DNA of 64,000 bases from Streptomyces sp. DG2A-72. Its GTDB lineage: Bacteria > Actinomycetota > Actinomycetes > Streptomycetales > Streptomycetaceae. The stretch is taken from NCBI RefSeq assembly GCF_030499575.1, contig NZ_JASTLC010000001.1, positions 1,736,001 through 1,800,000 of the forward strand. The letters are read 5' to 3'. Numbering within the stretch: position 1 is the stretch's first letter; the number at the start of each line of letters is the position of its first letter. Below are positions 47,454 to 64,000 of this stretch, in pieces. A program made the position numbers and the translations under genes. The notes beneath the pieces were generated by a model that had not been told where the DNA came from, made no database searches, and worked only from the letters and a program-made list of their open reading frames with translations.

Positions 47454-48350
47454 ATGGACATCGCCTTACTCGGACCACTCGGCGCTCGGATCGGGCAGGC
47501 GTCAGTCGTCCCGAGCGCCGCGAAACCACGCAAGGTCCTGGCGCTGCTCGGGCTCGACTGCGGGCGCCCGGTGAGTGTTTCGATACTGGTGGACGAGCTG
47601 TGGGGGGACCGGCCGCCGCGTTCGGCCGAGGCCACGCTCCACACGTATGTGAAACAGCTCCGCCGGCTCATCGCACAGGCTCTCGAACCGGACGCGCCCC
47701 GAAGGGGCGCGGGGAACTGCGCGACCAGCCACGACGGGCCGGCAGACAAACGACAGCCCATCGCGGCACGTCCCGCAGAGCGCCTGGGCCCTCGGGACCT
47801 GCTGCGGCGCGTCCCGGGGGGCTATCTGCTCGATGTCCCCGCCGAGTCGACGGACGCCGCCCGCTTCGAACACCTCGCCACGGCGGGGCGGCAGGCGATC
47901 GAGAAGGGCGTGGACGACGAGGGCTGTGCGCTGCTGATGCGGGCGCTCAGGCTGTGGCGGGGCCCCGTACTCGCCGACGTGGAGCCGGGGTTCGTGCTGC
48001 GGGCGGAGGCCTTGCGGCTGGAGGAGCTGCGGATGGCGGCCCTGGAGGAGCGCTTCGACGCGGAGCTGCGGCTCGGTCGGCACCGGGTCGTGCTCGGTGA
48101 ACTCGCCTCGCTCGCCTCCCGGTTCCCGCTGCACGAGGCCCTGCACGCGCAGCTGATCCTCGCCCTGCACCGCAGCGGCCGCTCCTGGCAGGCCCTGGAG
48201 ACGTTCCGCGCGCTGCGCCGCACCCTCGCCGACGAGCTGGGCCTCGAACCGTCGTCCCGGCTGCGGGAGTTGCACGAGGCCGTGCTGCGCGGGGATCCGG
48301 CGCTGGACAGCGAGGGGACCTGGTTGCCGCGACCATTGGCGGCCCGGTGA
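47454..48350 (+). CDS. SARP-type pathway activator with TTA codon and repeat-derived insert
   Basis: 298 aa. An OmpR-like winged helix (MDIALLGPLGARIG, PRKVLALLGLDCGRPVSVSI, SAEATLHTYVKQLRRLIAQ, GGYLLDV) is followed by a bacterial transcriptional activation domain (residues 130-285). The fifth codon is TTA (47466-47468), so expression should depend on bldA. Residues about 80-105 (PRRGAGNCATSHDGPADKRQ) are encoded by a dispersed repeat inserted in the wing just before GGYLLDV. It lies at the head of the biosynthetic cluster and is its probable activator. A GTG directly before the ATG is an alternative start. Confidence 0.87.
   Translation: MDIALLGPLGARIGQASVVPSAAKPRKVLALLGLDCGRPVSVSILVDELWGDRPPRSAEATLHTYVKQLRRLIAQALEPDAPRRGAGNCATSHDGPADKRQPIAARPAERLGPRDLLRRVPGGYLLDVPAESTDAARFEHLATAGRQAIEKGVDDEGCALLMRALRLWRGPVLADVEPGFVLRAEALRLEELRMAALEERFDAELRLGRHRVVLGELASLASRFPLHEALHAQLILALHRSGRSWQALETFRALRRTLADELGLEPSSRLRELHEAVLRGDPALDSEGTWLPRPLAAR
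47693..47768 (+). repeat. dispersed repeat, copy 3, inside the SARP gene
   Basis: GCGCCCC-GAA-GGGGCGC, GGGGAACTGCGCGACCAGCC, ACGACGGGCC, GGCAGACAAACGACAGCCCA, TCGCGG. Copy 3 is near-identical to the second half of copy 2. It is in frame with the SARP and is read as RRGAGNCATSHDGPAD. Confidence 0.9.
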
Positions 48351-49186
48351 CGGAGTACCTGTCGCGTCCACCGCGTCCCGGCGCGGCCGGCCGGCTGCTG
48401 TGCTTCCCGTACGCGGGCGGGGGCGCCTCCGCCTACGTCCGCTGGGAGCGGGGGCTGGCCCGGCGGGGCGCCGCGGTGGACGTCCTGCCGGTACGGCTGC
48501 CCGGCCGCGAGGGCCGGATCGCCGAACCCCGCCACAGCGAACTGGCCCCGCTCATCGTCGAGTTGGACGCGGAGCTCAGCCCCGTGCTGGACGCGGACGG
48601 GCCGCCGGTGCTGCTGTACGGGCACAGCATGGGCGCGCTGCTCGCGTACGAGGTCGTACGGCGTCGTCAGTCGCGCGGTGCCCGGCTGCCGAGTGCCGCG
48701 CTGCTCGCCGCGTACCGCGCCCCGCACCTGCCCCCGCCGCGCATCGGCGGCCCGGACGCGTCCGACGAGGAGCTGACCCGGGAACTGGCCGCGCTGGGCG
48801 GGCTGCCGCCGGTGCTGCTCGGGCATCCGGAGTGGCTGCTGGCGCTGCTGCCGATAGTGCGGGACGACCTCCGGCTGTGCGCCGACGCGGAGGGGACGGC
48901 CGATCGGGTGGACGTCCCGCTGCATCTGTTCGCCGGGGAGACGGACGAGTTGGTGCCGCGTGGGGAGGTCCGGGAGTGGCGGATGTGCGCGGCCCGCGGC
49001 TGGGAGCTGTGGACGGTGCCGGGCGGTCACTTCTTCCTCCGCACGCACGAGCCCGCGCTGCTCGACGTGGTGGCGGCGGTGGTACGCCGGTACCTCACGC
49101 CGCCGCATCCCGCACCGGCTGAGCCACCGCATCCCGTACGCCGGCCGGAGCCCGACCCCGCCGCCTCCGCACCCGAAGGACCCTGA
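48347..49186 (+). CDS. type II thioesterase
   Basis: 279 aa alpha/beta hydrolase: LLCFPYAGGGASAYVRW, nucleophile GHSMG (S94), Asp in LFAGETDELV and His in PGGHFFL, the set found in editing thioesterases of PKS/NRPS clusters. It removes aberrant acyl groups from carrier proteins. The GTG start overlaps the SARP stop, so regulator and editing enzyme are co-translated. The Pro-rich tail overlaps the convergent transporter gene by 92 bp. Confidence 0.88.
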   Translation: MTEYLSRPPRPGAAGRLLCFPYAGGGASAYVRWERGLARRGAAVDVLPVRLPGREGRIAEPRHSELAPLIVELDAELSPVLDADGPPVLLYGHSMGALLAYEVVRRRQSRGARLPSAALLAAYRAPHLPPPRIGGPDASDEELTRELAALGGLPPVLLGHPEWLLALLPIVRDDLRLCADAEGTADRVDVPLHLFAGETDELVPRGEVREWRMCAARGWELWTVPGGHFFLRTHEPALLDVVAAVVRRYLTPPHPAPAEPPHPVRRPEPDPAASAPEGP

Positions 49187-49808
49187 TCGCCGTGACCCCG
49201 CCGGCCGCGGTCAGCGGCACGTCGGCCCAGAACGTCCAACGCCAGTGGGACGCGGGCACGCAGGCCCCGGCGACCAGCCCCGCCGTCACCCCGGCGAGCA
49301 GCACGGCGCCCCACACCACCAGCAGCCGGTTCGTGTGCACCGGCACCACGAGCAGCGCGGCGGCGGTCAGCGCGGCCGCCCCCGCACCCTGCGCCGCCCG
49401 CAGCGCGAGGAAGGCCCCGGCATCCGGTACGAGCGTGCAGGCGACGGAGGCCTGCGCGAACAGCCACAGCCCGATGAGCAGCATCACCAGCGGCCCGGTG
49501 CGCCGGCCGAGACGCCGAGCGGGCAGCACGAGGGCACCGAGCCCGACGACGTAGGCGATGACGGCCCAGGGCAGCCAGGTCGTCGGCAACCCGTTCGCGG
49601 CATGCAGTTCGGCCCCGAGCACGGCGACGACCGCTCCGGCACCGGCGATGACGAGCTGATGCAGGGCGAGGGCGGCGAGAAGCACCGGGCCCTGCCGCTC
49701 AGGCCCGCAGCCCGCACCGGTGCGACGGCTGCGCTCGGCCGCGTCGGAGCCCGCGTCGCCGACCCGCCTCACCACAGCCCCGCCACCCGGCTCCTCAGCC
49801 CCTGACAT
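49095..49808 (-). CDS. half-length MFS transporter (N-terminal six helices)
   Basis: 237 aa with six hydrophobic helices and MFS features: motif-A-like LPARRLGRRTGP between helices 2 and 3, LRAAQGAGAAALTAA in helix 4 and WRWTFWADVPL before helix 6, all typical of the first half of DHA2 drug exporters, which have 12-14 helices. The gene stops there, and no second half follows on either strand. It may be a truncated gene or a naturally small exporter working as a dimer. Its start overlaps the monooxygenase stop by 14 bp. Confidence 0.7.
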   Translation of the reverse strand: MSGAEEPGGGAVVRRVGDAGSDAAERSRRTGAGCGPERQGPVLLAALALHQLVIAGAGAVVAVLGAELHAANGLPTTWLPWAVIAYVVGLGALVLPARRLGRRTGPLVMLLIGLWLFAQASVACTLVPDAGAFLALRAAQGAGAAALTAAALLVVPVHTNRLLVVWGAVLLAGVTAGLVAGACVPASHWRWTFWADVPLTAAGGVTAIRVLRVRRRRGRAPAGVRDAVAQPVRDAAA

Positions 49809-51045
49809 CCTGCTGCACCTTGGCCACCCGCTCCCCCGGCTTCTGCACCTGGAAATACGCGCCCGCGAGGACCTTGTGGGTGAGGCGTTCGCTGTGGTCG
49901 ACGGCTCGGTAGAGGGTGCGGCGCCAGCCACCGCCGAGTCGGCCGCCGAGGGAGAAGAGGCGTTCCTGGCGCAGTTGGAGAGCGCGGGAGCGGGCGACGG
50001 AGGCCTCGCGGGCGCGCTGGAAGCGGTCGGTCGCGTGGGTGAGCGCGGCCGGGCCCTCAGGGAGCGCGTCCTCCAGGAGCGGCGCCAGCGTCACCGCGTC
50101 GATGATGGCGTGGTTGACGCCCTGGCCGAGGATCGGCGTGAGGGTGTGCGCGGCGTCGCCGATGAGGACGAGGCCGGGGGCCGACCAACGCGGCACCACG
50201 GTCGTGAAGATGTCGAGCATGGATGTGTCCGACCAGCCACGGATGTGGTTGCGAACGGTGTCCGACAGTTCGGGTGCGAGCAGATCGAGCCGCTGGTGCA
50301 GCAAGGGCAGCCCGTGCTTACGGATCTCCTTCAGGCCACCCTTGGGAATGTTGAACCCGACGCGCACACTGTCGGGCCGGGTCGGGATGAACAGCCCGTG
50401 CTGGTCGCCCCGGATGCGCACCCGGTACGTACGGTCGTCCCAACTGTCGTACGGAAACGGCAGCTTGAGCCAGACGACGTCCCGGTCGAGCGGCATCACC
50501 TGCGCGTGAAGCCCCGACATCTCCCGCACCTTGCTGAACCGTCCGTCCGCGCCGACGGTGAGCGTGGCGTGGACGGTCGTCGCGCCGTCGGGCGTGCGGG
50601 CCCGTACGCCGGTGACCTTGCCCCCGTCCCGGAGGAGCTCCGTGGCGGTCGCCCCCTGGATCAGCGTGAACGAGGCGTGTTCGGCGCCGGCTTCGGCGAG
50701 CGTCGACAGCAGGGTGTGCTGCGGCAGCTCGACCGGGAAGGGGTGCGGGTACTGGAAGCGGTCGAAGTCGGCGCGGAGCACGGTGTGCCCGGAGTCCTCG
50801 ATCTCGAACCGGTGCATCTGGACGTAGGCGCCGTCGAGCCGGTCGAGGATGCCCAGCTCGTCGAGGAGCCACACCGAGTCGGGTGACACGGACTCCCCGC
50901 GGAACGAGCGGTTGAAGTGCTTGGACGCCTCCAGCACGACGACGTCGACCCCGCGCCGGGCGAGTTCCACGGCGAGGGTGAGCCCGGCGGGCCCGCCACC
51001 CACCACACAGACCTGGGTACGCAGTTCACGCCCTGTTTCGTCCAT
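49795..51045 (-). CDS. FAD-dependent monooxygenase
   Basis: 416 aa group-A flavoprotein: Rossmann GGGPAGLTLAVELARRGVDV (residues 16 onward), RGESVSP, DG motif VGADGRFSKVRE and GD motif LIGDAAHTLTPILGQGVNHA. It would hydroxylate or epoxidise a cluster intermediate. It is transcribed opposite to the main biosynthetic genes with the half-MFS gene behind it, leaving a 121-bp divergent promoter region before the FkbH gene. Confidence 0.88.
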   Translation of the reverse strand: MDETGRELRTQVCVVGGGPAGLTLAVELARRGVDVVVLEASKHFNRSFRGESVSPDSVWLLDELGILDRLDGAYVQMHRFEIEDSGHTVLRADFDRFQYPHPFPVELPQHTLLSTLAEAGAEHASFTLIQGATATELLRDGGKVTGVRARTPDGATTVHATLTVGADGRFSKVREMSGLHAQVMPLDRDVVWLKLPFPYDSWDDRTYRVRIRGDQHGLFIPTRPDSVRVGFNIPKGGLKEIRKHGLPLLHQRLDLLAPELSDTVRNHIRGWSDTSMLDIFTTVVPRWSAPGLVLIGDAAHTLTPILGQGVNHAIIDAVTLAPLLEDALPEGPAALTHATDRFQRAREASVARSRALQLRQERLFSLGGRLGGGWRRTLYRAVDHSERLTHKVLAGAYFQVQKPGERVAKVQQDVRG

Positions 51046-51166
51046 CGTCCCGCCTTCCCTGGGCCGTACGGTCGAGGCCCACCCTCCGCAGCCGGCCTTG
51101 CGCCCGCCTTGCGTGTCCGCGGCCCGCACAAGGGACCGTTAAGGCGCGGCTCGCAGGCTCCCTGGC

Positions 51167-53065
51167 ATGACCACCGAGACGACGGCGGCGGCCGGTCCAC
51201 TCGACCGGCTGCGCTTGATGCACTCCGACGGCAGCCTGGCGGCACGCCGGCACGATCTGCCCGCGCTGCTCGACCGGCTGGCCACCGGCGACGAGCCGGA
51301 GGCGGCGCTGCGGACGGCGGGACGGCTCATCGGATCCGTCCGCGACCAGCTCGCCGGGGCCGGGACCGAGACGCTCACCGTGTCGATCGACGGCAGCGGC
51401 ACGCTGGACGGCCTGGTGCCTTCGCTGACCGCGGAACTGGCCCGGCACCGCCTGCTGCTCAGCCCGCTCACCGGTGACCACGGCGCCTGGGTACGGGCCC
51501 TGCTGGACGCAGACAGCCCCGTGTACGCGCCCGGCACCGCCCTCGCCCTGTGTGTGCTCGACGCCTCGGTGGTCTTCGACTCACTGCCGACGCCCTGGAC
51601 GGCGAAGGACGCCATGGCGGCGGCGCGGGACTTCCTCGCCCGCCTCGACCACCTCACCGCCCACCACGCCCGTCACGGCCAAGGCACCCTCGTCCTCAAC
51701 ACCCTCCCGCTCCTGCGCGAGCACACCCACCAGCTGGTCGACCACCGATCGCGTGCCGAACTGAGCACGGCATGGCGGGAGTTGAACGCGGGGATCCTCC
51801 GGCTCGCAACCACCCACCCCCGCACCCACACCATCGACCTGGAGCCCCTGGCGAACGCGAGCGGCCCGGTCCGCGACACCCGCCTCGCCGGATACGCCCG
51901 CGCCCGCCTCGGCTCCGACCTGCTCGCCGGGTACGCCCGCGAGGTCGCCCATCTGGCCCGCACCCTGCGCGGCCGTACCAAGAAGGTCCTGGTCCTGGAC
52001 GCCGACAACACCCTGTGGGACGGCGTCCTCGGCGACGCGGGTCCCGAGGGCATCGCCGCCGCGTCCACTCTGCGCGGCGAGGCGTTCGGCCGGTTCCAGC
52101 GGGTGATACGGCAGCTCGGCGCCCAGGGCGTGCTGCTCGCCGTCTGCTCCAAGAACGACCAGGAACCGCTCGCCCACGTCCTGCGTACCCACCCCGACAT
52201 GGCCCTGTCCGAGGACGACTTCACCGTCGTACGAGGGGACTGGGGGCCCAAGGACGAGGGGTTGCGGGCGATCGCCGAGCGGCTCGGGCTCGGGGTGGAC
52301 AGTCTCGTCTTCGCGGACGACTCCCCGTTCGAGCGGGCGCAGGTCTCGGCCGCGCTGCCGGACGTGTCGGTCGTACCGCTGGACGACGAACCGGCCCTGC
52401 ACGCCGAACGCCTTCTCGCCGACGGCTGGTTCGACGTGCCGGAGCTGACGGAGACGGACCGGCAGCGCGGCGCGCAGTACCGCAGCGAGGGCGAGCGGCG
52501 GGAGCTGCTGGAGAGCGCCGAGTCGTACGAGGACTTCCTCGCGCGCCTCGAAGTGGCCGTCGAGGTGGCGCCGCTGCGACCGCACGAGGTGGCCCGGGTC
52601 GCCCAACTCACCCAGCGCACCAACCAGTTCAATCTCGCGACGCGCCGTATGACGGCGGACGAGGTGACCGAGGCGGCCGAGTCGGGGCTGGTCCTCACCG
52701 TCTGCGCCCGTGACCGGTTCGGCGACAACGGCCTGGTCGGGGCGGTGTTCGTGTCGTATGAGGACGACGGCTGGCGTATCGACAACGCGCTGCTCAGTTG
52801 CCGGGTCTTCGGCCGTCGTATCGAACATGCGCTGGTGGGCGGGGTGCTGGCACTGGCTGCCCGGGAGGCCGGGGTGGCCGTGGTGCGCGGGCGGTTCCGG
52901 CCCACCGCGAAGAACCACCGTTTCGCGGACTTCTATCTCTCGCTCGGCTTCGAACCGTACGGCCCGCCGCAGGCCGACGGGACGGCCGAGTACCGGCATG
53001 CACTGCGGGACCTGCCCGCTGTGCCGTGTCACATCACACTCACCGTGACAGGGGGACGGCCGTGA
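51167..53065 (+). CDS. FkbH-like HAD-superfamily glyceryl-ACP synthase
   Basis: 632 aa. The N-terminal region of about 265 aa is SGNH-like; the HAD-IIIC core carries D278-A-D280-N-T282 (VLDADNTLWDGVLGD), VCSKND and VFADDSPFE; the C-terminal GNAT-like domain includes VARVAQLTQRTNQFNLATRR. Such proteins dephosphorylate 1,3-bisphosphoglycerate and load glyceryl onto an ACP, giving the C3 unit of tetronates. The second ACP of this cluster (62543) is the probable partner. First gene of a long overlapped operon; its stop overlaps the FAAL start by 4 bp. Confidence 0.88.
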   Translation: MTTETTAAAGPLDRLRLMHSDGSLAARRHDLPALLDRLATGDEPEAALRTAGRLIGSVRDQLAGAGTETLTVSIDGSGTLDGLVPSLTAELARHRLLLSPLTGDHGAWVRALLDADSPVYAPGTALALCVLDASVVFDSLPTPWTAKDAMAAARDFLARLDHLTAHHARHGQGTLVLNTLPLLREHTHQLVDHRSRAELSTAWRELNAGILRLATTHPRTHTIDLEPLANASGPVRDTRLAGYARARLGSDLLAGYAREVAHLARTLRGRTKKVLVLDADNTLWDGVLGDAGPEGIAAASTLRGEAFGRFQRVIRQLGAQGVLLAVCSKNDQEPLAHVLRTHPDMALSEDDFTVVRGDWGPKDEGLRAIAERLGLGVDSLVFADDSPFERAQVSAALPDVSVVPLDDEPALHAERLLADGWFDVPELTETDRQRGAQYRSEGERRELLESAESYEDFLARLEVAVEVAPLRPHEVARVAQLTQRTNQFNLATRRMTADEVTEAAESGLVLTVCARDRFGDNGLVGAVFVSYEDDGWRIDNALLSCRVFGRRIEHALVGGVLALAAREAGVAVVRGRFRPTAKNHRFADFYLSLGFEPYGPPQADGTAEYRHALRDLPAVPCHITLTVTGGRP

Positions 53066-54819
53066 CCAGCACACCGCTCCGCTTCGCACCGGCGCAGGCG
53101 GACACGTTCACCCGCGTCGTCCTGGAGCGCGCCGCCGCGCACCCGGAGCGCACCGCGTTCATCTACCTCCCGGACCGCTCGGACGCCACCGAACCCGAGC
53201 AACTGACCTACGGAGACCTGGACATACAGGCGCGCAGCGTGGCGGCCTGGCTGCAGGAACGGCGCGCGACCGGCCGCCCGGTGCTGCTGCTGCATCCGCC
53301 GGGCCCGGAGTTCCTGGCGGCGTTCGCGGGCTGCCTGTACGCCGGAGCCGTCGCCGTACCGGCCCCGCTCCCCACGGACCAGGGCGAGCAACTCGCCCGC
53401 GTGGGCGGCATATTGCGGGACTCGGATGCCGTGGCCGTCCTCACGACGTCCACGTACGCGCCCCTCCTCCAGGCCTGGCTGGACTCCCTCGAACTGCCCC
53501 ACGTCCACACCCTGGCCACCGACGCGGCAGGCCTCACTCACGCCCCCGACCCGGAGCAGTGGCGCGCGGCGACCGTCCGCCCGGACGATCTCGCCTTCCT
53601 CCAGTACACCTCCGGCTCGACCAGCGACCCCAAGGGCGTCATGGTCACCCATGCCAACCTGCTCGCCAACGAGGCGGCGATCCACCGCTGGAGCGGCACC
53701 AGGGAGCACATGGTCGTCGGCGGCTGGCTGCCGCACTACCACGACCTCGGGCTGATCGGTCATCTCCTCCAGCCGCTGTACGCGGGCGGCGTCGCGGTCC
53801 AGATGTCGCCGCTGTCGTTCCTGAAGCGCCCCCGGCGCTGGCTGGAGATGATCGGCACCTACCAGGTCGAGGGGTCGGGGGCGCCCGACTTCGCGTTCGA
53901 GCTGTGCACCCGGCGTATCACCGACGAGCAGTTGGAGCAGCTCGACCTGTCCAGCTGGCGGGTCGCCCCGAACGGCGCCGAGCCGGTACGCGCCGAAACC
54001 CTGCGGACCTTCGCCGAGCGGTTCGCCCCGGCCGGCTTCCGCGCCGAGGCGTTCACCCCGTGCTACGGCCTCGCGGAGACGACGCTGCTCGTCACGGGCG
54101 CCGACGCGGCTGCCGACCCGACCGTTCTGACCGTCGACTCCGCCGCCCTCGAACAGGGCGTCCTGGCCGAGGGCGAGGACCGGACCCTGGTCTCCAGTGG
54201 CACCGTCCGCGACTGCGAGGTGCGGATCTGCGACCCGGAGACGGGCGGCGAGCTGCGGGACGGGCGGGTCGGCGAGGTGTGGGTGCGCGGGCCGAGCGTC
54301 ACGGCCGGTTACTACGGCAACCAGGCGGCCACCGCGGAGTGCTTCCGCCCGGACGGCTGGGTGCGCACGGGCGATCTGGGCGTCCTGGACGGCGGCGAGC
54401 TGTATGTCACCGGCCGGATCAAGGAGGTCGTGGTCCTCGCGGGCCGCAACCTCTACCCGCACGACGTCGAGCGTGCCGCCAGGGCCGCCGATCCCTCGCT
54501 GGCCCGGGGCGCGGGCGCCGCCTTCGGCGTCACGGCGGGCGACCGCGAGCATCTGGTCCTGATCCTGGAGGTCCGTCTCGCGGCCGTCCCCGACGGGGAC
54601 CTGCACCAGGTCGCGACCGCCGTCCAGCACACCCTCGGCCGGGAGTTCGCGCTCCCCGTGGGCAGCGTCCTGCTCGTCCGCCCCGGCTCGGTCCGCCGCA
54701 CGACCAGCGGAAAGGTCCGCCGCGGGGTGATGCGGGAGCTGTTCCTCAAGGGCGAGGTGACACCACTGTACGAGGTGCTGGACCCGGCGGTCCGGGCCGT
54801 ACGGGAGGGCACTTCATGA
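53062..54819 (+). CDS. fatty-acyl-AMP ligase (FAAL)
   Basis: 585 aa acyl-adenylating enzyme of the FAAL type: P-loop QYTSGSTSDPKGVMVTHANL, GGWLPHYHDLGLIG, YGLAETTLLVTG, VRTGDLGVL and the C-terminal GRNLYPHDVE. The FAAL-specific insertion is expected after VRGPSVTAGYY. It activates a free fatty acid as acyl-AMP and transfers it to a carrier protein, most simply the ACP at 58348. It is in frame-overlap with both neighbours, implying a fixed stoichiometry. It would supply the starter chain. Confidence 0.9.
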   Translation: MTSTPLRFAPAQADTFTRVVLERAAAHPERTAFIYLPDRSDATEPEQLTYGDLDIQARSVAAWLQERRATGRPVLLLHPPGPEFLAAFAGCLYAGAVAVPAPLPTDQGEQLARVGGILRDSDAVAVLTTSTYAPLLQAWLDSLELPHVHTLATDAAGLTHAPDPEQWRAATVRPDDLAFLQYTSGSTSDPKGVMVTHANLLANEAAIHRWSGTREHMVVGGWLPHYHDLGLIGHLLQPLYAGGVAVQMSPLSFLKRPRRWLEMIGTYQVEGSGAPDFAFELCTRRITDEQLEQLDLSSWRVAPNGAEPVRAETLRTFAERFAPAGFRAEAFTPCYGLAETTLLVTGADAAADPTVLTVDSAALEQGVLAEGEDRTLVSSGTVRDCEVRICDPETGGELRDGRVGEVWVRGPSVTAGYYGNQAATAECFRPDGWVRTGDLGVLDGGELYVTGRIKEVVVLAGRNLYPHDVERAARAADPSLARGAGAAFGVTAGDREHLVLILEVRLAAVPDGDLHQVATAVQHTLGREFALPVGSVLLVRPGSVRRTTSGKVRRGVMRELFLKGEVTPLYEVLDPAVRAVREGTS

Positions 54820-58318: not shown

Positions 58319-58347
58319 ACCCTGCTGCTCTCACTCTGGAGAACCCC

Positions 58348-58614
58348 ATGTCCTTGCCCACCGTCCCCACGGAGCAGTCCCTGATCGACTGGCTCACCAC
58401 GCGGGTCGGCGCCTATCTGCGGCGCGACCCGGCCGAGATCGACCCGACGGTGCCGCTCGCCGAGTACGGCCTGGACTCGGTGGCCGCGCTCAGTCTCTGC
58501 GGTGATGTGGAGGACCACTTCGGCATCCCCGTGGACCCCACGGCCGCCTGGGACTTCCCGACCGTGCGGGCGCTCGCCGGCCACCTCTGGAAAGAGCTGG
58601 AGAACGCCGGATGA
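58348..58614 (+). CDS. acyl carrier protein 1
   Basis: 88 aa ACP with attachment Ser44 in YGLDSVAALSL. Probable acceptor of the FAAL-activated fatty acid and substrate for the dehydrogenase pair, from which the chain passes to the PKS ketosynthase. It lies 29 bp after the dehydrogenase gene with GGAG before the ATG; its stop overlaps the PKS ATG by 4 bp. Confidence 0.9.
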   Translation: MSLPTVPTEQSLIDWLTTRVGAYLRRDPAEIDPTVPLAEYGLDSVAALSLCGDVEDHFGIPVDPTAAWDFPTVRALAGHLWKELENAG

Positions 58615-61484
58615 GCGCAGTTGCCGTAACCGGTCTCGACTGCCGTTTCCCGGGTGCCGAGGATCCGTACCGCTTCTGGGAGTTGCTGATACGGGGCGGC
58701 GACGGCATCAGCCGGGTGCCGCGTGAGCGCTGGGACCCCGGGGTGACGGGCGGCCCCGGCGAGGGCGGCTTCCTCGCGGACGCGGACGCTTTCGACAACG
58801 CCTTCTTCACCATCACCCCGCGCGAGGCGGCGTCCATGGATCCGCAGCAGCGGCTGATGCTGCAGTGCGCGTGGCGGGCCTTCGAGGACGCGGGCGTCGC
58901 GCCGCACCGGCTGGCGGGGACGGCGACCGGTGTGTTCGTCGGGGTGATGGGCAGCGAGTGGGCACAGCTGACACTGACCGACCTGCCGGGGATCACCCCG
59001 CAGATCGGTTCCGGAAACGGCTACTGCATGATCGCCAACCGGGTCTCGTACCACCTGGACCTCAAGGGCCCGTGCCTGGCCGTCGACACGGCGTGCTCGT
59101 CGTCGCTGGTCGCGGTGCATCTGGCGGTGAACGCCCTGCTGTCCGGCGAGTGCGACCGGGCCCTGGCGGGCGGCGTCAACATCGCGCTGACGCCCGCGCT
59201 CGGCCTGTTCTACGAGCGGGCGGGGCTCGCGGCGCCGGACGGCCGCTGCAAGCCGTTCAGCGCGGGGGCGAACGGCATCGGGCGCGGGGAAGGCGTCGGG
59301 GCGGTCGTGCTGCGGCGCCTGGAGGACGCGCTGGCCGACGGCGATCACGTGTACGCGGTGATCCGTGGGACGGCCGTCAACCAGGACGGGCGGAGCAACG
59401 GGCTGACCGCGCCGAGCCGTTGGTCGCAGCAGGAGGTGATGGCGGCGGCGTTCCGCAGGGCGGGCGTGGAGCCCGGCGACGTGGTCTTCACCGAGGGGCA
59501 CGGCACCGGGACCGCTCTCGGCGACATGATCGAGGCGAAGGCCCTCGGCGCCTGGCACGCCGGCCGCGCCCGCCCGATGGCCCTAGGCTCCGTCAAGGGC
59601 AACCTCGGCCACACGGAGGGCGCCGCCGGGATCGCCGGCCTCATCAAGGTCGCCCTCGCCCTGCACCACCGCACGGTCCCGGTCAGCCGCTTCGCCGCGC
59701 ACGAGAACCCCGGGCTCCGCCTGGCGGAGAAGGGGCTGAGGCTCCTGAAGTCACCGCTGAGGCTGTCCGGTCCGGCGCTGGCGGGCCTGAGCAGCTTCGG
59801 CATGGGCGGCACGAACGCACACGCCGTCCTGGAGTCGGCGCCCTCAGTCCGTACGACGGCTTCGGCGCCGCCCGCGCTCGGCGCCCATGTCTTCACCCTC
59901 ACCGCACCCGACGCGCCCGCGCTGCGCCGCAACCTCGCCGCCCAGGCCGAGGCGATCGGCCGACGCCAGTCACCGGTCGGGCCGTTGTGCCGGGCCTCGC
60001 ATCGGGTCAAGTCGGGGCATGCGGTGCGGGCGGCGGTCGTGGTGGGGGCGGAGGAGGGCAGTTCGCGGCTGGCGGAGGCGCTGCGCGACGAACGGCCCAT
60101 GGCTGCTCAGCAAGCCCCGCTCATCGCCGCCCTGTTCACCGGCCAGGGTGCCCAGTTCCCCACCATGGGCGCCCAGCTCTACCGTTCGTCCTCGCTCTAC
60201 CGCCGTCACCTGGACGCGGCCGACGCGGCGCTGCTGCCGTACACCGAGACGTCCGTACGCGACCTGCTGCTGCGCGGCGACCCGGCCGTGCACCGTACGC
60301 GCTGGGCGCAACCGGCCCTGTTCGCCGTCGGTTACGCGCTGGGCGCCGCGCTCGCGGATGCCGGTGTGCGCCCGGCGCTGCTGCTCGGGCACAGCGTGGG
60401 TGAGTTCGCGGCGGCGGTGCATGCCGAGGCGCTGTCGCTGGCGGACGCGGCCCGGCTGATCGCCGCGCGGGGCGCGCTGATGGAGCAACTCCCGGACGGT
60501 GGCGGCATGCTGGCCGTCCATGCGCCCGCGGACCGGCTGCACGAGCTGGTCGAGCGGGAGCCCCTGGTCGGCTTCGCCGCCTTCAACGGCCCCCGGTCCA
60601 CAGTGCTTTCCGGCGACCTCGCCGCCCTGGACCGCATCGCGTCCGCCCTCGACGGCGTCCGGGTGCGCCGCCTGGAGGTCTCGCACGCCTTCCACTCACC
60701 GCTCATGCGGCCGGTCCTCGAACCGTTCCACCGCATCGCCGAGGAGACGGCGGGCGGCGTCCCGCGCATCCCGTTCTACTCGACCGTGCGCGGCAAGGTC
60801 CTGGAGTCGGAGCCGCTGGACGCCGCGTACTGGACGGAACACATCAGCGCCCCGGTCCTGTTCGCGGACGCCGCCGCCCAGCTCCTGGACGAGCGCCCCA
60901 CCCACGTCGTCGAACTCGGCCCCCGCCCGGTCCTGACCGCCCTGGCCCGCCGTATCGCGACCGGCCACCCGCCGGTCCCGCTGCACCCCCTGCCGGGCGA
61001 GGCTGCGACCGGGACGGAGCTGGCGGCGACGGTCGCCGCCCTGTACCGGGCGGGCCTGGACGTGGACTGGCCCGCGCAGGACGAGGGACCGACGCGACAG
61101 CTGCTGCCGTACACCTTCGCCACGGACGGACGCTTCTGGCGCGGCGGCCTGCCGACTCCGCCTCCGCCCGTGATCGAGGCGGAACCGGAGGAGGTTTCAC
61201 GCACCGACTCGATCGAGATCCACGTCCTCGAAGCCGTCGCCGGACTCGGCGGCTACGACGTCTCCGCGCTCTCCCCGCACTCGCGTCCGCAGGAGGACCT
61301 CGGCCTGGACTCGGTCACGTTGATCGAGTTGAAGGCGCGTGTCGAGGCCCGGCTGCCGTCGCTGGGGCCGCTGCCGGTGGAGGAGCTGCTCGGCCATCTG
61401 TCCACGCTCGGCGACCTGATCGCGTACGTCACCGCGCGCGCCGCACAAGGTGGCGTCGCCTCATCGACGGAGTCCGCCCTATGA
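58611..61484 (+). CDS. single-module type I PKS (KS-AT-ACP)
   Basis: 957 aa. KS at 1-425 with C162 (VDTACSSSL), H297 (EGHGTGT) and H334 (GNLGHTEGA). AT at 505-790 with S595 (GHSVGEF) and HAFH at 692-695, which predicts malonyl-CoA. ACP at 865-950 with S901 (LGLDSVTLIE). No KR, DH, ER or TE, so one round gives a beta-ketoacyl-ACP, the substrate required for tetronate formation. The KS is probably fed by ACP1. The gene overlaps both ACP1 and the KASIII-like gene by 4 bp. Confidence 0.92.
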   Translation: MSAVAVTGLDCRFPGAEDPYRFWELLIRGGDGISRVPRERWDPGVTGGPGEGGFLADADAFDNAFFTITPREAASMDPQQRLMLQCAWRAFEDAGVAPHRLAGTATGVFVGVMGSEWAQLTLTDLPGITPQIGSGNGYCMIANRVSYHLDLKGPCLAVDTACSSSLVAVHLAVNALLSGECDRALAGGVNIALTPALGLFYERAGLAAPDGRCKPFSAGANGIGRGEGVGAVVLRRLEDALADGDHVYAVIRGTAVNQDGRSNGLTAPSRWSQQEVMAAAFRRAGVEPGDVVFTEGHGTGTALGDMIEAKALGAWHAGRARPMALGSVKGNLGHTEGAAGIAGLIKVALALHHRTVPVSRFAAHENPGLRLAEKGLRLLKSPLRLSGPALAGLSSFGMGGTNAHAVLESAPSVRTTASAPPALGAHVFTLTAPDAPALRRNLAAQAEAIGRRQSPVGPLCRASHRVKSGHAVRAAVVVGAEEGSSRLAEALRDERPMAAQQAPLIAALFTGQGAQFPTMGAQLYRSSSLYRRHLDAADAALLPYTETSVRDLLLRGDPAVHRTRWAQPALFAVGYALGAALADAGVRPALLLGHSVGEFAAAVHAEALSLADAARLIAARGALMEQLPDGGGMLAVHAPADRLHELVEREPLVGFAAFNGPRSTVLSGDLAALDRIASALDGVRVRRLEVSHAFHSPLMRPVLEPFHRIAEETAGGVPRIPFYSTVRGKVLESEPLDAAYWTEHISAPVLFADAAAQLLDERPTHVVELGPRPVLTALARRIATGHPPVPLHPLPGEAATGTELAATVAALYRAGLDVDWPAQDEGPTRQLLPYTFATDGRFWRGGLPTPPPPVIEAEPEEVSRTDSIEIHVLEAVAGLGGYDVSALSPHSRPQEDLGLDSVTLIELKARVEARLPSLGPLPVEELLGHLSTLGDLIAYVTARAAQGGVASSTESAL

Positions 61485-62521
61485 CCGTGCCCGCACCTCC
61501 CGCCGTCCCCACCGTCCATGTAGCCGCCGCCGGTTCCGCATTGCCCGGCGCGCCCGTCGACAACGCCTCGCTGGCCGCGTCGCTGGGCGTCAACGAGGAG
61601 TGGATCGACCACTTCATCGGCACCCGCACCCGTCACTTCGCCCGCGATCTGAGCACCGGAGAGGTCCGCTGGTCCCTGGCCGACCTGTGCGCGGAGGCCA
61701 CCTCGCAGGCGATCGAGTGCTCCGGCACCGACCCGGCCGACATCGAGTTCATCGTCCTGGGCACGGCGACGCCGGACCATCTGATGCCGGCCACCGTCAA
61801 CGAGATCGCCGACCGCCTCGGCCTGGACCAAATCCCCACCTATCAGCTCCAGTCGGGCTGCGCGGGCGCCGTGCAGGCCCTCGCGCTCGCCCACACCTTC
61901 ATCAGCAGCGGCACCCACCGCACCGGCCTCGCCATCGGCGGCGACGTCTGCACCAAGCATCTCGACCTGCGCCGCGACCTCGCCTCCGCGGCCCCCGGCG
62001 ACCTGGTCAACTGCGTGCTGTTCGGCGACGGCGCGGGCGCCGCCGTCATCGGCGCCGACGCCGGTGAACGGCCGGTCGCCCTGCGCCGCACCCTCAACCG
62101 CTGTACGGGGCTGGGCCGCAGCCCCGGCCAGATCATCGACTGGTTCGGGCTCGCCGACCGGCACGACCAGCGCCAGGTGCTCACCGAGGACTACAAGGCG
62201 ATCGAGGGCTCGGTGCCCGCCATGGCCGTGGAGATCCTCTGGGAGCTCCTGGACGACCTGGGCTGGTCGGCCGAGGACCTGGACTTCCTTCTGCCGCCGC
62301 AGCTGTCGGGCCGTATGACCCGGCTGATCACCGAGCAGCTGGGGCTGCCGGCCGCGCGCGAGATCTCCTGCGTCGCGGACACCGGCAACAACGGCAACGC
62401 ACTGCCCTTCCTCCAGCTTCAGCAGCTGATGAAGGAGATCGCGGGCGGCCAGAAGGCCCTCGCCGTCGCGGTCGAGTCAAGCAAGTGGATCAAGGCGGGG
62501 TTCGCCTTGGAAGGACTGTAG
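61481..62521 (+). CDS. KASIII-like tetronate-forming condensing enzyme
   Basis: 346 aa FabH fold with nucleophile C127 (QSGCAGAVQAL). The segment that in FabH is PHQAN reads L-P272-P273-Q274-L-S, so the catalytic His is missing; an Asn remains in DTGNNGNA. Homologues in tetronate clusters join glyceryl-ACP to a beta-ketoacyl chain forming the C-C and C-O bonds, a reaction that needs no malonyl decarboxylation, which would explain the lost His. Located between the PKS and the glyceryl-ACP candidate. Confidence 0.85.
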   Translation: MTVPAPPAVPTVHVAAAGSALPGAPVDNASLAASLGVNEEWIDHFIGTRTRHFARDLSTGEVRWSLADLCAEATSQAIECSGTDPADIEFIVLGTATPDHLMPATVNEIADRLGLDQIPTYQLQSGCAGAVQALALAHTFISSGTHRTGLAIGGDVCTKHLDLRRDLASAAPGDLVNCVLFGDGAGAAVIGADAGERPVALRRTLNRCTGLGRSPGQIIDWFGLADRHDQRQVLTEDYKAIEGSVPAMAVEILWELLDDLGWSAEDLDFLLPPQLSGRMTRLITEQLGLPAAREISCVADTGNNGNALPFLQLQQLMKEIAGGQKALAVAVESSKWIKAGFALEGL

Positions 62522-62542
62522 AGCCGTGGAAGGACGGTAGAG

Positions 62543-62806
62543 ATGCCCACAGAGACCCACCCGCTGCCCCTGGCCGAGTTCGCGCGCCTGGTGCGCGGCG
62601 AGACCGGCCTCCCCCTCGGCACGACACCCGCCGAGGAAACGGCCCTGCTCGACGCCGACTTCGACGAACTGCCCGAGTGGGACTCCATGTACCTGCTGAA
62701 GCTGGTGACCGCCCTGGAGCACACCCTCGGCCGCCCCGTCCCGGTCGGCCGCCTCCTCGAAGCCCGCAGCCTCCGTCAGATCCACGAGCTGGTGATCACG
62801 ACATGA
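62543..62806 (+). CDS. acyl carrier protein 2, probable glyceryl-ACP
   Basis: 87 aa with attachment Ser48 in LPEWDSMYLLKLV. The E-W-D-S-M context is typical of stand-alone ACPs that work with FkbH-like proteins. It probably carries glyceryl delivered by the FkbH homologue to the KASIII-like enzyme. It starts 21 bp after the KASIII stop, and its end overlaps the E2-like gene by 4 bp. Confidence 0.87.
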   Translation: MPTETHPLPLAEFARLVRGETGLPLGTTPAEETALLDADFDELPEWDSMYLLKLVTALEHTLGRPVPVGRLLEARSLRQIHELVITT

Positions 62807-63663
62807 GCACTTCCTTGACAACCACTCATCCGGTACGCGCCCGCCGCCACACCCTCTACTTCCTGGAGTACGCCGCCCGCCAGCGCCCGGTGTTCCTGGA
62901 CACGGACGTCGACATGGGCGCCGTCCACGCCCACCGCGCCGCCGCCGAACGCCGCTACTCGACGGTGACGTACGTCCTGTACGCGGCGGGCCGTGTCCTG
63001 CACCGCCACCCCGAGGCCAACGCCGTCCTGGCGCCGCGCCGCCTGCGCGCCCCGCGCATCGTGCGTTTCCCGTCGGTCACCGGCAAGCTCGCGCTCGACG
63101 CCAAGTCGGCCGGGGGCGAGCGCGTCGTACTGTCCGCGCTGATCCCCGTCCTGGAGTCGGCGACTCTGGACTCCATCCAGGACCAGGTCGACCGCTACCG
63201 CTCGCCCGACGTCGCCACCCTCCCGGAGTTCGGTGGCGTACGGGCCCTCGTGCGGCTCCCGGTGTGGCTGGGCCGCGCCGCCTTCGCGCACGCCCTGCGC
63301 AGTGCCCGGCGACGTCCTTCGGTCCTCGGCACGGTCTCCGTCAGCTCCCTCGGCCACCGCCCGGTGGACGGCTTCCACTCCACGGGCGGTACGGCGGTGA
63401 CCCTCACCTGCGGCCGGACGACCCCCCGTCCGGTGGTCCGCGAGGACGGCACCATCGAGGCCGCCCCCGTCATGCGCCTCGGTCTCGCCTTCGACCACCG
63501 CGTCCTCGACGGCGCCGCCGCGGCGGACGTCCTCGGGGAGCTGACGGATGCGCTGGAGCACGGCAGTTGGGAGGCCACGTCCGATGCACCCCCACGCCTT
63601 GCACCCGTCGCCGAGCTGCGCTCCCCCACCCCCTCCCGTGCCCCTCACCGCCCGGCCGGCTGA
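62803..63663 (+). CDS. E2-type (2-oxoacid dehydrogenase) acyltransferase
   Basis: 286 aa catalytic domain of the dihydrolipoyl acyltransferase family with the active-site motif DHRVLDG (H232), but no lipoyl or peripheral-subunit-binding domain. In agglomerin/RK-682-type tetronate pathways this kind of enzyme acetylates the primary alcohol of the hydroxymethyl tetronate before elimination to the exocyclic methylene. No Agg5-like eliminating hydrolase is seen within the window. The 3' end overlaps the next gene by 80 bp. Confidence 0.87.
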   Translation: MSTSLTTTHPVRARRHTLYFLEYAARQRPVFLDTDVDMGAVHAHRAAAERRYSTVTYVLYAAGRVLHRHPEANAVLAPRRLRAPRIVRFPSVTGKLALDAKSAGGERVVLSALIPVLESATLDSIQDQVDRYRSPDVATLPEFGGVRALVRLPVWLGRAAFAHALRSARRRPSVLGTVSVSSLGHRPVDGFHSTGGTAVTLTCGRTTPRPVVREDGTIEAAPVMRLGLAFDHRVLDGAAAADVLGELTDALEHGSWEATSDAPPRLAPVAELRSPTPSRAPHRPAG

Positions 63664-64000
63664 GGCCGCTCGGCTGCTCGCGCAGGGGGCGGTCGTGGCG
63701 TACGGCTCCGTGTCCGACTGGGCCGACCGGGCGCCGTCGCTGCGGGGCGCGGACGCGGCCAGGCTCCGCGGGCCGGCGCATCCCGAGGTCCGGGCGCGCT
63801 TCCTGGCGGCACGGGCCCTGCTCCACCACATCCTCGGGGCCACGGACCTCGCCTACGACCCCGGGGGCCGCCCCCGCCTCTGCGGACCCGCGTCCCGTTA
63901 CGCCGTCAGCCTCAGCCACACCGACGGCCTGGTCCTCGTGGGCCTGTGCGAGCGCACCGCCGCCCGCCTCACCATCGGCGTCGACCTGGAACGCACCGAC
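63584..64000 (+). CDS. 4'-phosphopantetheinyl transferase, C-terminus beyond the window
   Basis: At least 139 codons, still open at the window edge. The Sfp-like order is seen: VRARFLAARALLHHILG, AYDPGGRPRLCGPASRYAVS, LSHTDGLVLVGL and IGVDLERTD, the last holding the Mg-binding Asp-x-Glu. It would attach the phosphopantetheine arm to the three carrier domains of this cluster. The ATG at 63584 lies inside the E2-like gene; a GTG at 63638 with homology starting right after is the alternative. Confidence 0.85.
   Translation, partial: MHPHALHPSPSCAPPPPPVPLTARPAEAARLLAQGAVVAYGSVSDWADRAPSLRGADAARLRGPAHPEVRARFLAARALLHHILGATDLAYDPGGRPRLCGPASRYAVSLSHTDGLVLVGLCERTAARLTIGVDLERTD

What the first reader, a model, noticed from the sequence alone, without database searches (positions are those of the whole stretch)
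47454..64000. Candidate undescribed tetronate pathway built from FAAL, dehydrogenase pair and one-module PKS
Seen: FkbH-like protein, FAAL, two ACAD paralogues, ACP, KS-AT-ACP, KASIII-like protein, ACP, E2 acyltransferase and PPTase, in one strand direction with 1-4 bp overlaps at most junctions (29 and 21 bp gaps before the two ACPs), headed by SARP, thioesterase and monooxygenase. Known: FkbH, ACP, KASIII and E2 acyltransferase are the tetronate set (agglomerin, RK-682 type). Inferred: a free fatty acid is activated by FAAL on ACP1, desaturated by the ACAD pair, extended once with malonyl and condensed with glyceryl-ACP to a 3-acyl tetronate, possibly acetylated and then oxidised. The combination with FAAL and the ACAD pair is one I do not recognise as a described cluster.
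Basis: partly seen in the sequence, partly recalled or inferred. Interest (0 to 1): 0.88.

Follow-up and report, generated by a model that had tools for sequence, protein, structure and literature searches.

The report
Fatty-acid-fed tetronate gene cluster
This stretch of a Streptomyces chromosome most likely makes a small ring-shaped, antibiotic-like lipid (an acyl tetronate) from an ordinary fatty acid, and relatives of it turn out to be widespread in Streptomyces.

Summary
FkbH, FAAL, two acyl-CoA-dehydrogenase-like proteins (ACAD1/2), ACP1, KS-AT-ACP, KASIII, ACP2, E2 and PPTase form one tightly packed operon (51167-64288). Just past the window lies the predicted Agg5-type hydrolase (AbyA5-like, E 3e-90, ATGA overlap), then a second SARP. 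SARP1 and thioesterase are linked; the monooxygenase is linked but on the opposite strand. The KASIII falls inside the tetronate clade and shares its altered active site (His lost, 57 of 57 rows). So the predicted product, a 3-(alk-2-enoyl)-5-methylidene tetronate, is well founded but untested. It is not a one-off: in 199 genomes of the genus I found 43 tetronate KASIII genes; by my sorting 31 sit in FAAL-type clusters, 17 with the ACAD pair. A relative in strain HM190 is apparently already called highly similar to the RK-682 cluster in print. FAAL-ACAD-ACAD-ACP matches the rotihibin lipid cassette. New points: ACAD1 has an invariant Asp, and ACAD2 no carboxylate, at the usual catalytic Glu site, suggesting one hetero-oligomeric desaturase; and a sister lineage seems to have the pathway split between two distant loci. 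Verdict: new variant of a known kind.

The parts
47454..48350 (+). SARP1 regulator (BTAD domain), with an in-frame copy of a genome-wide repeat in its linker
   Evidence: Pfam BTAD 5.5e-43; linkage to TEII/FMO kept in G122, G128, G159, though flanking kinase/regulator/MMPL genes are also kept there
48347..49186 (+). Type II thioesterase
   Evidence: Pfam Thioesterase 3.4e-28; linked in 3 of 3 near relatives examined; also in L018 and type III loci
49095..49931 (-). Half-length MFS-like ORF (bounds uncertain), convergent with TEII
   Evidence: Pfam MFS_1, profile 5-187 of 347; similar match in G122 and G128, not found in G159
49795..51129 (-). FAD monooxygenase (FAD_binding_3), possible tailoring enzyme
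   Evidence: Pfam FAD_binding_3 2.7e-41; best PDB match 8uiu E 2e-39; linked homologues at 51-80% identity in L032, L040, L041 (=L089), L052, L060, L090, L091 and 93% in G122
51167..53065 (+). FkbH-type glyceryl-ACP synthase
   Evidence: NCBIfam FkbH TIGR01686 6.9e-89
53062..54819 (+). Fatty acyl-AMP ligase (FAAL)
   Evidence: PDB 7r7f E 2e-142, then FadD23/FadD28/FadD32-type FAALs
54816..56558 (+). ACAD1, long acyl-CoA-dehydrogenase-like protein with Asp at the catalytic Glu position
   Evidence: Pfam ACAD domains; FDG in 43 of 43 distinct sequences
56558..58318 (+). ACAD2, paralogue with GHAG at the catalytic Glu position
   Evidence: Pfam ACAD domains; GHAG in 44 of 45 distinct sequences, the exception (L093) not linked to a KASIII
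58348..58614 (+). ACP1 (predicted acyl carrier for FAAL/ACAD)
   Evidence: Pfam PP-binding 7.2e-17
58611..61484 (+). One-module PKS, KS-AT-ACP; AT has HAFH (malonyl-type motif, recalled)
   Evidence: Pfam KS, AT, PP-binding, no KR/DH/ER
61481..62521 (+). KASIII-like tetronate-forming enzyme (PPQLSGRM in place of HQAN)
   Evidence: PDB 5by7 E 2e-120; tree and motifs
62543..62806 (+). ACP2 (predicted glyceryl carrier)
   Evidence: Pfam PP-binding 3e-5; ACP2 match beside KASIII, FkbH or E2 in many loci
62803..63663 (+). E2-type acyltransferase, predicted Agg4-like
   Evidence: Pfam 2-oxoacid_dh 6.9e-15; homologues in other tetronate loci; PDB matches only generic E2 proteins
63584..64000 (+). PPTase, cut by the window end (true end 64288, start uncertain). 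Beyond it, outside the window: AbyA5-type hydrolase at 64285-65343 (+, L004:4285-5343) and SARP2 at 65234-66268 (-, L004:5234-6268)
   Evidence: PPTase Pfam ACPS 1.7e-16; hydrolase to PDB 5no5 AbyA5 E 3.4e-90, ATGA overlap with PPTase; SARP2 Pfam BTAD 7e-49, SARP on the strand opposite to KASIII in 28 of 39 named loci

Best explanation
An operon for a lipid-derived 3-acyl-5-methylidene tetronate. FAAL adenylates a free fatty acid and loads it on ACP1; ACAD1/ACAD2 together introduce an alpha,beta double bond (by analogy to rotihibin, cis-2); the KS-AT-ACP module adds one malonyl unit without reduction, giving a 3-oxo-4-enoyl thioester; FkbH makes glyceryl-ACP2; the KASIII-like enzyme joins the two and closes the tetronate ring; E2 acetylates the 5-hydroxymethyl and the AbyA5-like hydrolase eliminates acetate to leave an exocyclic methylidene; the monooxygenase may oxidise the product. 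Shown by sequence: enzyme families, clade membership of the KASIII, absence of reductive PKS domains, conserved gene order. Inferred: every chemical step, chain length, number and geometry of double bonds, the role of the monooxygenase.
For: KASIII is in one clade with KASIIIs of classical-type clusters and PDB 5by7 against six FabH-type rows (SH-aLRT 100, quick tree, 63 rows); Cys and Asn are kept and the HQAN His lost in 57 of 57 tetronate rows, while 5 of 6 FabH-type rows have HQAN. Hydrolase E 3.4e-90 to AbyA5. E2/hydrolase acetylation-elimination and the FkbH/KASIII roles are stated for tetronates in PMC5819245, PMC7489565 and PMC4979870 (passages). The FAAL-ACAD-ACAD-ACP order equals rthH-rthI-rthJ-rthK of rotihibin, whose lipid is given as cis-2-decenoic acid (PMC8552735, passages); published RthH/RthI/RthJ peptides were found in that S. 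scabiei locus and RthI/RthJ show Asp and a GH motif at the same site. FAAL, ACAD pair, ACP1, PKS and KASIII occur in this order in 32 of 39 named loci and in 14 of 43 sampled regions.
Against: No product is known for any type I cluster in what I read. Neither ACAD has the canonical or the IVD-type catalytic Glu, so desaturation is not assured. E2 and hydrolase are not always together: the hydrolase is found without a detected E2 in L007, L038, L039, L052, L066, L067, L070-L072, L085, L087, L088, L090, L091, and E2 without a detected hydrolase in L024, L028, L034, L035, L044, L055. The monooxygenase is seen in only 3 of 39 named loci, whose stretch mostly does not reach its upstream place, and not in L058, whose stretch does. 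The KASIII tree was a quick search with long-branch warnings, and one own-genome FabH-type row (L095) also lacks HQAN. Ramoplanin-type pairs are recalled to give two double bonds, so one is not certain.
Confidence: 0.8

Rival explanations
1. The cluster is an RK-682-type cluster already characterised: product a saturated 3-acyl-5-hydroxymethyl tetronate, with ACADs, E2 and hydrolase not acting on it.
For: HM190's cluster 10 is called highly similar to the Streptomyces sp. 88-682 cluster (PMC7333363, passages); HM190 has one tetronate KASIII at E <= 1e-30 and it lies in a type I locus (L043). S. fildesensis So13.3 is said to have clusters above 50% gene similarity to known ones including RK-682 (PMC6522549, passage).
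Against: The window has FkbH first and carries E2 and an AbyA5-like hydrolase, while RkD-RkE-RkF are KASIII-FkbH-ACP by the papers; that order is seen in my types II, III and most of V, not in type I. RK-682 structure (hydroxymethyl, saturated acyl) is recalled. The RK-682 paper was not held, so its gene list was not seen.
Confidence: 0.12
2. FkbH and ACP2 supply a glycerate-derived extender (methoxymalonyl type) and the cluster makes a short polyketide lipid rather than a tetronate.
For: FkbH proteins also serve methoxymalonyl-ACP pathways (PMC7489565, passage).
Against: The methoxymalonyl partners (two dehydrogenases and an O-methyltransferase) are not among the operon's genes; the KASIII is in the tetronate clade and the hydrolase is AbyA5-like.
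Confidence: 0.03
3. The two ACADs act one after the other to give a 2,4-dienoyl chain (ramoplanin-like), rather than as one hetero-oligomeric enzyme giving one double bond.
For: Rotihibin authors suggest one ACAD makes the first double bond and the second may make a further, non-essential one (PMC8552735, passage); ramoplanin precedent cited there. Type II clusters keep only the ACAD2-like protein (9 of 9 with GHAG), which argues that it can work alone.
Against: ACAD2 has no carboxylate at either usual base position in 44 of 45 distinct sequences; rotihibin's lipid is given with one double bond.
Confidence: 0.3

Closest known systems
RK-682 cluster (Streptomyces sp. 88-682)
   Same: 3-acyl tetronate logic: FkbH (RkE), ACPs (RkC, RkF), KASIII (RkD) by the papers; a strain with a type I locus (HM190) has a cluster reported as highly similar
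   Different: Order KASIII-FkbH-ACP inferred from the lettering; no E2/hydrolase expected for its hydroxymethyl product (structure recalled); full gene list not seen
Agglomerin cluster (Pantoea agglomerans, seven genes)
   Same: FkbH/ACP/KASIII plus Agg4-type E2 and Agg5-type hydrolase (roles) on a fatty chain
   Different: Seven open reading frames, 8 kb (PMC11350110, passage); no FAAL, ACAD pair or PKS module known to me there (recalled)
Abyssomicin/spirotetronate clusters (AbyA1-A5 set)
   Same: Homologous five-gene glycerate set; hydrolase closest in PDB to AbyA5, KASIII to 5by7
   Different: Acyl chain made by large modular PKSs (passages); here by FAAL plus one module
Rotihibin lipid cassette RthH-RthK (and ramoplanin/enduracidin-type)
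   Same: FAAL-ACAD-ACAD-ACP in the same order; Asp and GH motifs at the same site of the two ACADs
   Different: Feeds an NRPS, not a PKS/tetronate pathway; RthI is 48% identical to ACAD1 over the matched part

Membership tests
Tetronate biosynthesis clusters | FkbH-like glyceryl transferase in the cluster | tested here: met
   TIGR01686 6.9e-89. The tree holds only tetronate-linked FkbHs and does not test membership
Tetronate biosynthesis clusters | Discrete ACP for glycerate | tested here: met
   ACP2, PP-binding 3e-5; which ACP carries glycerate is inferred from position
Tetronate biosynthesis clusters | KASIII/FabH-like enzyme of the tetronate clade | tested here: met
   Clade support 100 against six FabH-type rows; PPQL in place of HQAN in 57 of 57
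Tetronate biosynthesis clusters | Tetronate product | not testable with these tools
   No metabolite data
Exocyclic-methylidene tetronates (agglomerin/abyssomicin type) | E2-type acyltransferase (Agg4/AbyA4) | tested here: met
   Pfam 2-oxoacid_dh 6.9e-15; homologous to E2s of classical-type loci; not compared with Agg4 or AbyA4 by name
Exocyclic-methylidene tetronates (agglomerin/abyssomicin type) | Agg5/AbyA5-type hydrolase | tested here: met
   AbyA5 E 3.4e-90, starting 285 bases past the window in the same operon
RK-682-type cluster | Gene order KASIII-FkbH-ACP (RkD-RkE-RkF, order inferred from lettering) | tested here: not met
   Window order is FkbH ... KASIII-ACP2-E2; roles from PMC5819245 and PMC4979870 passages
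RK-682-type cluster | Full gene set of the 88-682 cluster | not testable with these tools
   Paper not held; I had no copy of its sequence
FAAL-ACAD-ACAD-ACP unsaturated-acyl cassette (rotihibin type) | Four genes in that order, homologous | tested here: met
   (published RthH/I/J peptides located; gene order of rthH-K from the table seen)
FAAL-ACAD-ACAD-ACP unsaturated-acyl cassette (rotihibin type) | alpha,beta-unsaturated acyl product | not testable with these tools
   No metabolite data
Canonical acyl-CoA dehydrogenases | Catalytic Glu at the MCAD/SCAD or IVD position | tested here: not met
   Asp in ACAD1 (43 of 43), GHAG in ACAD2 (44 of 45), T or S at the IVD position in both

The most novel reading that the evidence does not exclude
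ACAD1 and ACAD2 form one carrier-protein-dependent, hetero-oligomeric desaturase in which an Asp in ACAD1 replaces the usual Glu base and ACAD2 is a non-catalytic (or His-based) partner; this enzyme is shared by lipopeptide and tetronate pathways. In addition, in the S. phaeochromogenes lineage the tetronate pathway runs in trans from two distant loci, the lipid half having lost its own FkbH-ACP2-E2 and using a trio of classical-tetronate-cluster ancestry.
Probability: 0.35. Interest if true: 0.65.

Novelty: new variant of a known kind. Interest (0 to 1): 0.5.

Why it matters
In a sample of 199 genomes of the genus, FAAL-fed one-module tetronate clusters (31 of 43 KASIII hits, by my sorting) outnumber the classical or unresolved rest (12 of 43), while the tetronates I know as characterised are mostly of the classical modular-PKS kind (recalled). 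The clusters fall into a few architectures that differ in the desaturation genes and in the E2/hydrolase pair, so acyl unsaturation and ring tailoring can be predicted and tested cluster by cluster. The altered catalytic site of the dehydrogenase pair makes the question of how ACP-bound 2-enoyl lipids arise in lipopeptides and tetronates directly testable.

Tried and rejected
Considered and rejected: a unique, undescribed cluster; membership in RK-682 proper (order and E2/hydrolase differ; gene list not seen); methoxymalonyl use of FkbH (no partner genes); foxicin as a relative (FkbH is a domain of an NRPS/PKS there, PMC5318452, passages and abstract).

Led nowhere: paper searches for tetronate with fatty acyl-AMP ligase (0 papers), acyltetronic acid with acyl-CoA dehydrogenase (none of the 20 listed held 'acyltetronic acid'), dienoyl tetronic acids, RK-682 gene names (listing mostly unrelated). 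NCBIfam gave no pathway-specific name apart from FkbH. AlphaFold jobs were not used: a single-chain model would not settle whether the two ACADs associate.

Rows dropped or doubled: L045 (28% KASIII, Helicobacteraceae) left out of the 40 named loci. The named loci were found by exact peptide words of the window's KASIII, so they lean to close relatives. Identical ACAD rows were merged (48 to 43, 50 to 45). The ACAD2 row lacking GHAG is L093, a locus not linked to a KASIII, whose match ends at query residue 354. In the 199-genome sorting G028 and G116 have the ACADs on another contig or about 20 kb away; L069 (G168) is a short contig; L079 and L086 were placed with type V by the KASIII tree. 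L094 comes from outside that sample and L093 is a second region of G070.

Full report
WHAT IS THERE. The window is part of a 10.58 Mb genome (G000, contig 1, 1736001-1800000), of the genus Streptomyces judging by its nearest named relatives. From 51167 the plus strand carries FkbH, FAAL, ACAD1, ACAD2, ACP1, a KS-AT-ACP protein, KASIII, ACP2, an E2-type acyltransferase and a PPTase. Past the window the PPTase ends at 64288 and a FrsA-like alpha/beta hydrolase starts at 64285 with an ATGA overlap; it matches AbyA5 (PDB 5no5) at E 3.4e-90. A second SARP follows on the minus strand, then genes that I read as housekeeping. Upstream, SARP1 and a type II thioesterase are on the plus strand, but the FAD monooxygenase and a half-length MFS-like ORF are on the minus strand. 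SARP1, thioesterase and monooxygenase are linked to the cluster in three of three near relatives whose upstream stretch I fetched (G122, G128, G159); the MFS-like ORF was found in two of these three. The kinase and response regulator and the MMPL gene further upstream are kept there too, so linkage alone does not prove that SARP1 belongs. The monooxygenase has better support: homologues stand inside the operon in L032, L040, L041, L090 and L091. It is absent from L058, whose stretch covers the place.

IS IT A TETRONATE PATHWAY? In a 63-row KASIII tree (quick IQ-TREE, SH-aLRT only, with long-branch warnings) the window protein, PDB 5by7 (recalled to be AbyA1) and KASIIIs of classical-type clusters form one clade against six FabH-type rows (100). 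All 57 tetronate rows lack the HQAN histidine (PPQL at that place) and keep the Cys and Asn; five of the six FabH-type rows have HQAN. The roles of FkbH, ACP and KASIII in tetronate formation, and the acetylation-elimination by Agg4/Agg5-type enzymes, are stated in PMC5819245, PMC7489565 and PMC4979870 (passages). The PKS has KS, AT and ACP but no reductive domain in Pfam, so it should deliver a 3-oxo thioester, which the KASIII needs; the AT motif HAFH is malonyl-type (motif meaning recalled).

THE LIPID CASSETTE. The ligase is a FAAL (PDB 7r7f E 2e-142, then FadD23/28/32 types). FAAL-ACAD1-ACAD2-ACP1 also occurs away from tetronate genes, near large ORFs with condensation-domain motifs (motif scan only): in G128, G159 and G184 all four genes are adjacent; in G175 the FAAL lies about 12 kb away in opposite orientation; in G049 only a short ACAD2 fragment matched. 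In S. scabiei 87.22 the published tryptic peptides of RthH, RthI and RthJ (rotihibin cluster, PMC8552735, passages) sit in one such unit, RthI being 48% identical to ACAD1 over the matched part. That paper gives cis-2-decenoic acid as the rotihibin lipid and attributes desaturation to RthI/RthJ. By analogy I predict an alk-2-enoyl-ACP1 and, after one malonyl extension and ring closure, a 3-(alk-2-enoyl) tetronate.

AN ODD ACTIVE SITE. Aligned with SCAD-type chains, the catalytic Glu (YEGT motif; role recalled) is replaced by Asp in ACAD1 (FDG, 43 of 43 distinct sequences) and by GHAG in ACAD2 (44 of 45; the exception, L093, is not linked to a KASIII and its match ends early) and in the single ACAD of type II clusters (9 of 9). 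The alternative IVD-type position holds T or S in all of these. Rotihibin RthI and RthJ show Asp and a GHI motif at the same site, and the five other ACAD1 relatives also have FDG. The simplest reading is one hetero-oligomeric enzyme with ACAD1 as catalytic subunit, as known for mycobacterial steroid FadE pairs (recalled). Against it, type II clusters keep only the ACAD2-like protein, so that protein may have a function of its own.

HOW COMMON IS IT? Of 199 genomes of the genus (own included) 39 have a tetronate-type KASIII at E <= 1e-60, 43 genes in all. I fetched a stretch round each of the other 42 and sorted them by the genes found, with FAAL and ACAD searches of the same 39 genomes and the KASIII tree. 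Type I, window-like: 14 (in 12 the FAAL and ACAD pair are on the stretch; in G028 they are on another contig and in G116 the pair is about 20 kb off). Type IV, ACAD pair with the monooxygenase before the hydrolase: 3 (E2 found in one). Type II, single ACAD, no E2 or hydrolase found: 8. Type III, no ACAD or E2 found, hydrolase present: 6 (one, G168, on a short contig that shows no hydrolase, placed by the tree). Type V, classical set without FAAL nearby, or unresolved: 12. Thus 31 of 43 are FAAL-type and 17 of 43 have the ACAD pair. In the named set (40 loci; one unrelated locus dropped; leaning to close relatives) 32 of 39 hold FAAL, ACAD pair, ACP1, PKS and KASIII on one stretch, all 32 in the same order and strand. 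The types are my own sorting.

IS IT KNOWN? PMC7333363 (passages) says that strain HM190's cluster 10 is a 2H-furan PKS highly similar to the Streptomyces sp. 88-682 (RK-682) cluster. HM190 has one tetronate KASIII at E <= 1e-30 and it lies in a type I locus (L043); that cluster 10 is L043 is my inference. PMC6522549 (passage) reports a similar RK-682 label for another strain. The RK-682 paper itself was not held. I found no paper describing a tetronate cluster with FAAL and an ACAD pair in the listings; that library holds only open-licence papers and some listings were capped.

A SPLIT PATHWAY IN A SISTER LINEAGE. In G128 the locus lacks FkbH, ACP2 and E2: the monooxygenase is followed by FAAL, and KASIII directly by the hydrolase. 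S. phaeochromogenes NRRL B-1248 (L007) shows the same from ACAD2 onward, where its contig begins. Each genome has one tetronate KASIII (E <= 1e-60, E <= 1e-30) and one FkbH (E <= 1e-30); the FkbH lies elsewhere, about 7.1 Mb away in G128 and on another contig in S. phaeochromogenes, with ACP2 and E2 matches beside it. The distant FkbH and E2 group with those of classical-type clusters, not with type I. Between the two species dN/dS over the matched parts is 0.22 for FkbH, 0 for E2, 0.26 for ACP2, 0.05 for KASIII, 0.05 for ACP1 and 0.31 for the hydrolase, so both halves look maintained, though few changes were counted. In G128 the two loci together make up one full set apart from the PPTase, which I did not pursue. 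Whether they work together is untested.

VERDICT. Observation confirmed with a strand correction; the pathway reading is mostly supported; the claim of an unrecognised, isolated combination is not. It is a new variant of a known kind, with the unusual dehydrogenase pair and the split lineage as the parts most worth following.

Noticed in passing
L007, L052/L109 (lipid half); L107:8386-11041, L108:8833-11503 (FkbH-ACP2-E2): Tetronate pathway apparently split over two distant loci in two species, with complementary gene sets; the distant FkbH and E2 have classical-type ancestry. The L007 contig begins inside ACAD2.
   Followed up: partly
window 47706-47732 and 56615-56641 (pattern hits): A genome-wide repeat (236 hits within 3 mismatches, reversed-pattern control 0) lies in frame inside SARP1 and at the 5' end of ACAD2. 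A copy at the ACAD2 start is shared with GESEQ-35 (L006) but not seen in G128; the SARP1 copy is not seen in G122.
   Followed up: partly
L038, L039, L066, L067, L070-L072: Type III clusters carry the AbyA5-like hydrolase but no detectable E2 acetyltransferase and little room for one beside it; what the hydrolase does there is unclear.
   Followed up: no
L024, L028, L034, L035, L044, L055: Type I clusters with E2 but no detected hydrolase between PPTase and SARP, which would predict an acetylated or otherwise different ring.
   Followed up: no
L018/L058: Cluster whose ACAD pair sits about 20 kb away on the same contig instead of beside FAAL.
   Followed up: no
window 49095-49931 (-): Half-length MFS-like ORF overlapping the thioesterase end, matching only the first half of the family profile, with a similar match in G122 and G128.
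   Followed up: no
L037:14009-16870, L060:14585-17437, L004:6287-9142: The cluster sits beside what reads as the same DEAD-box helicase gene in the window's genome, L037 and L060, suggesting an old, vertically kept chromosomal position.
   Followed up: partly
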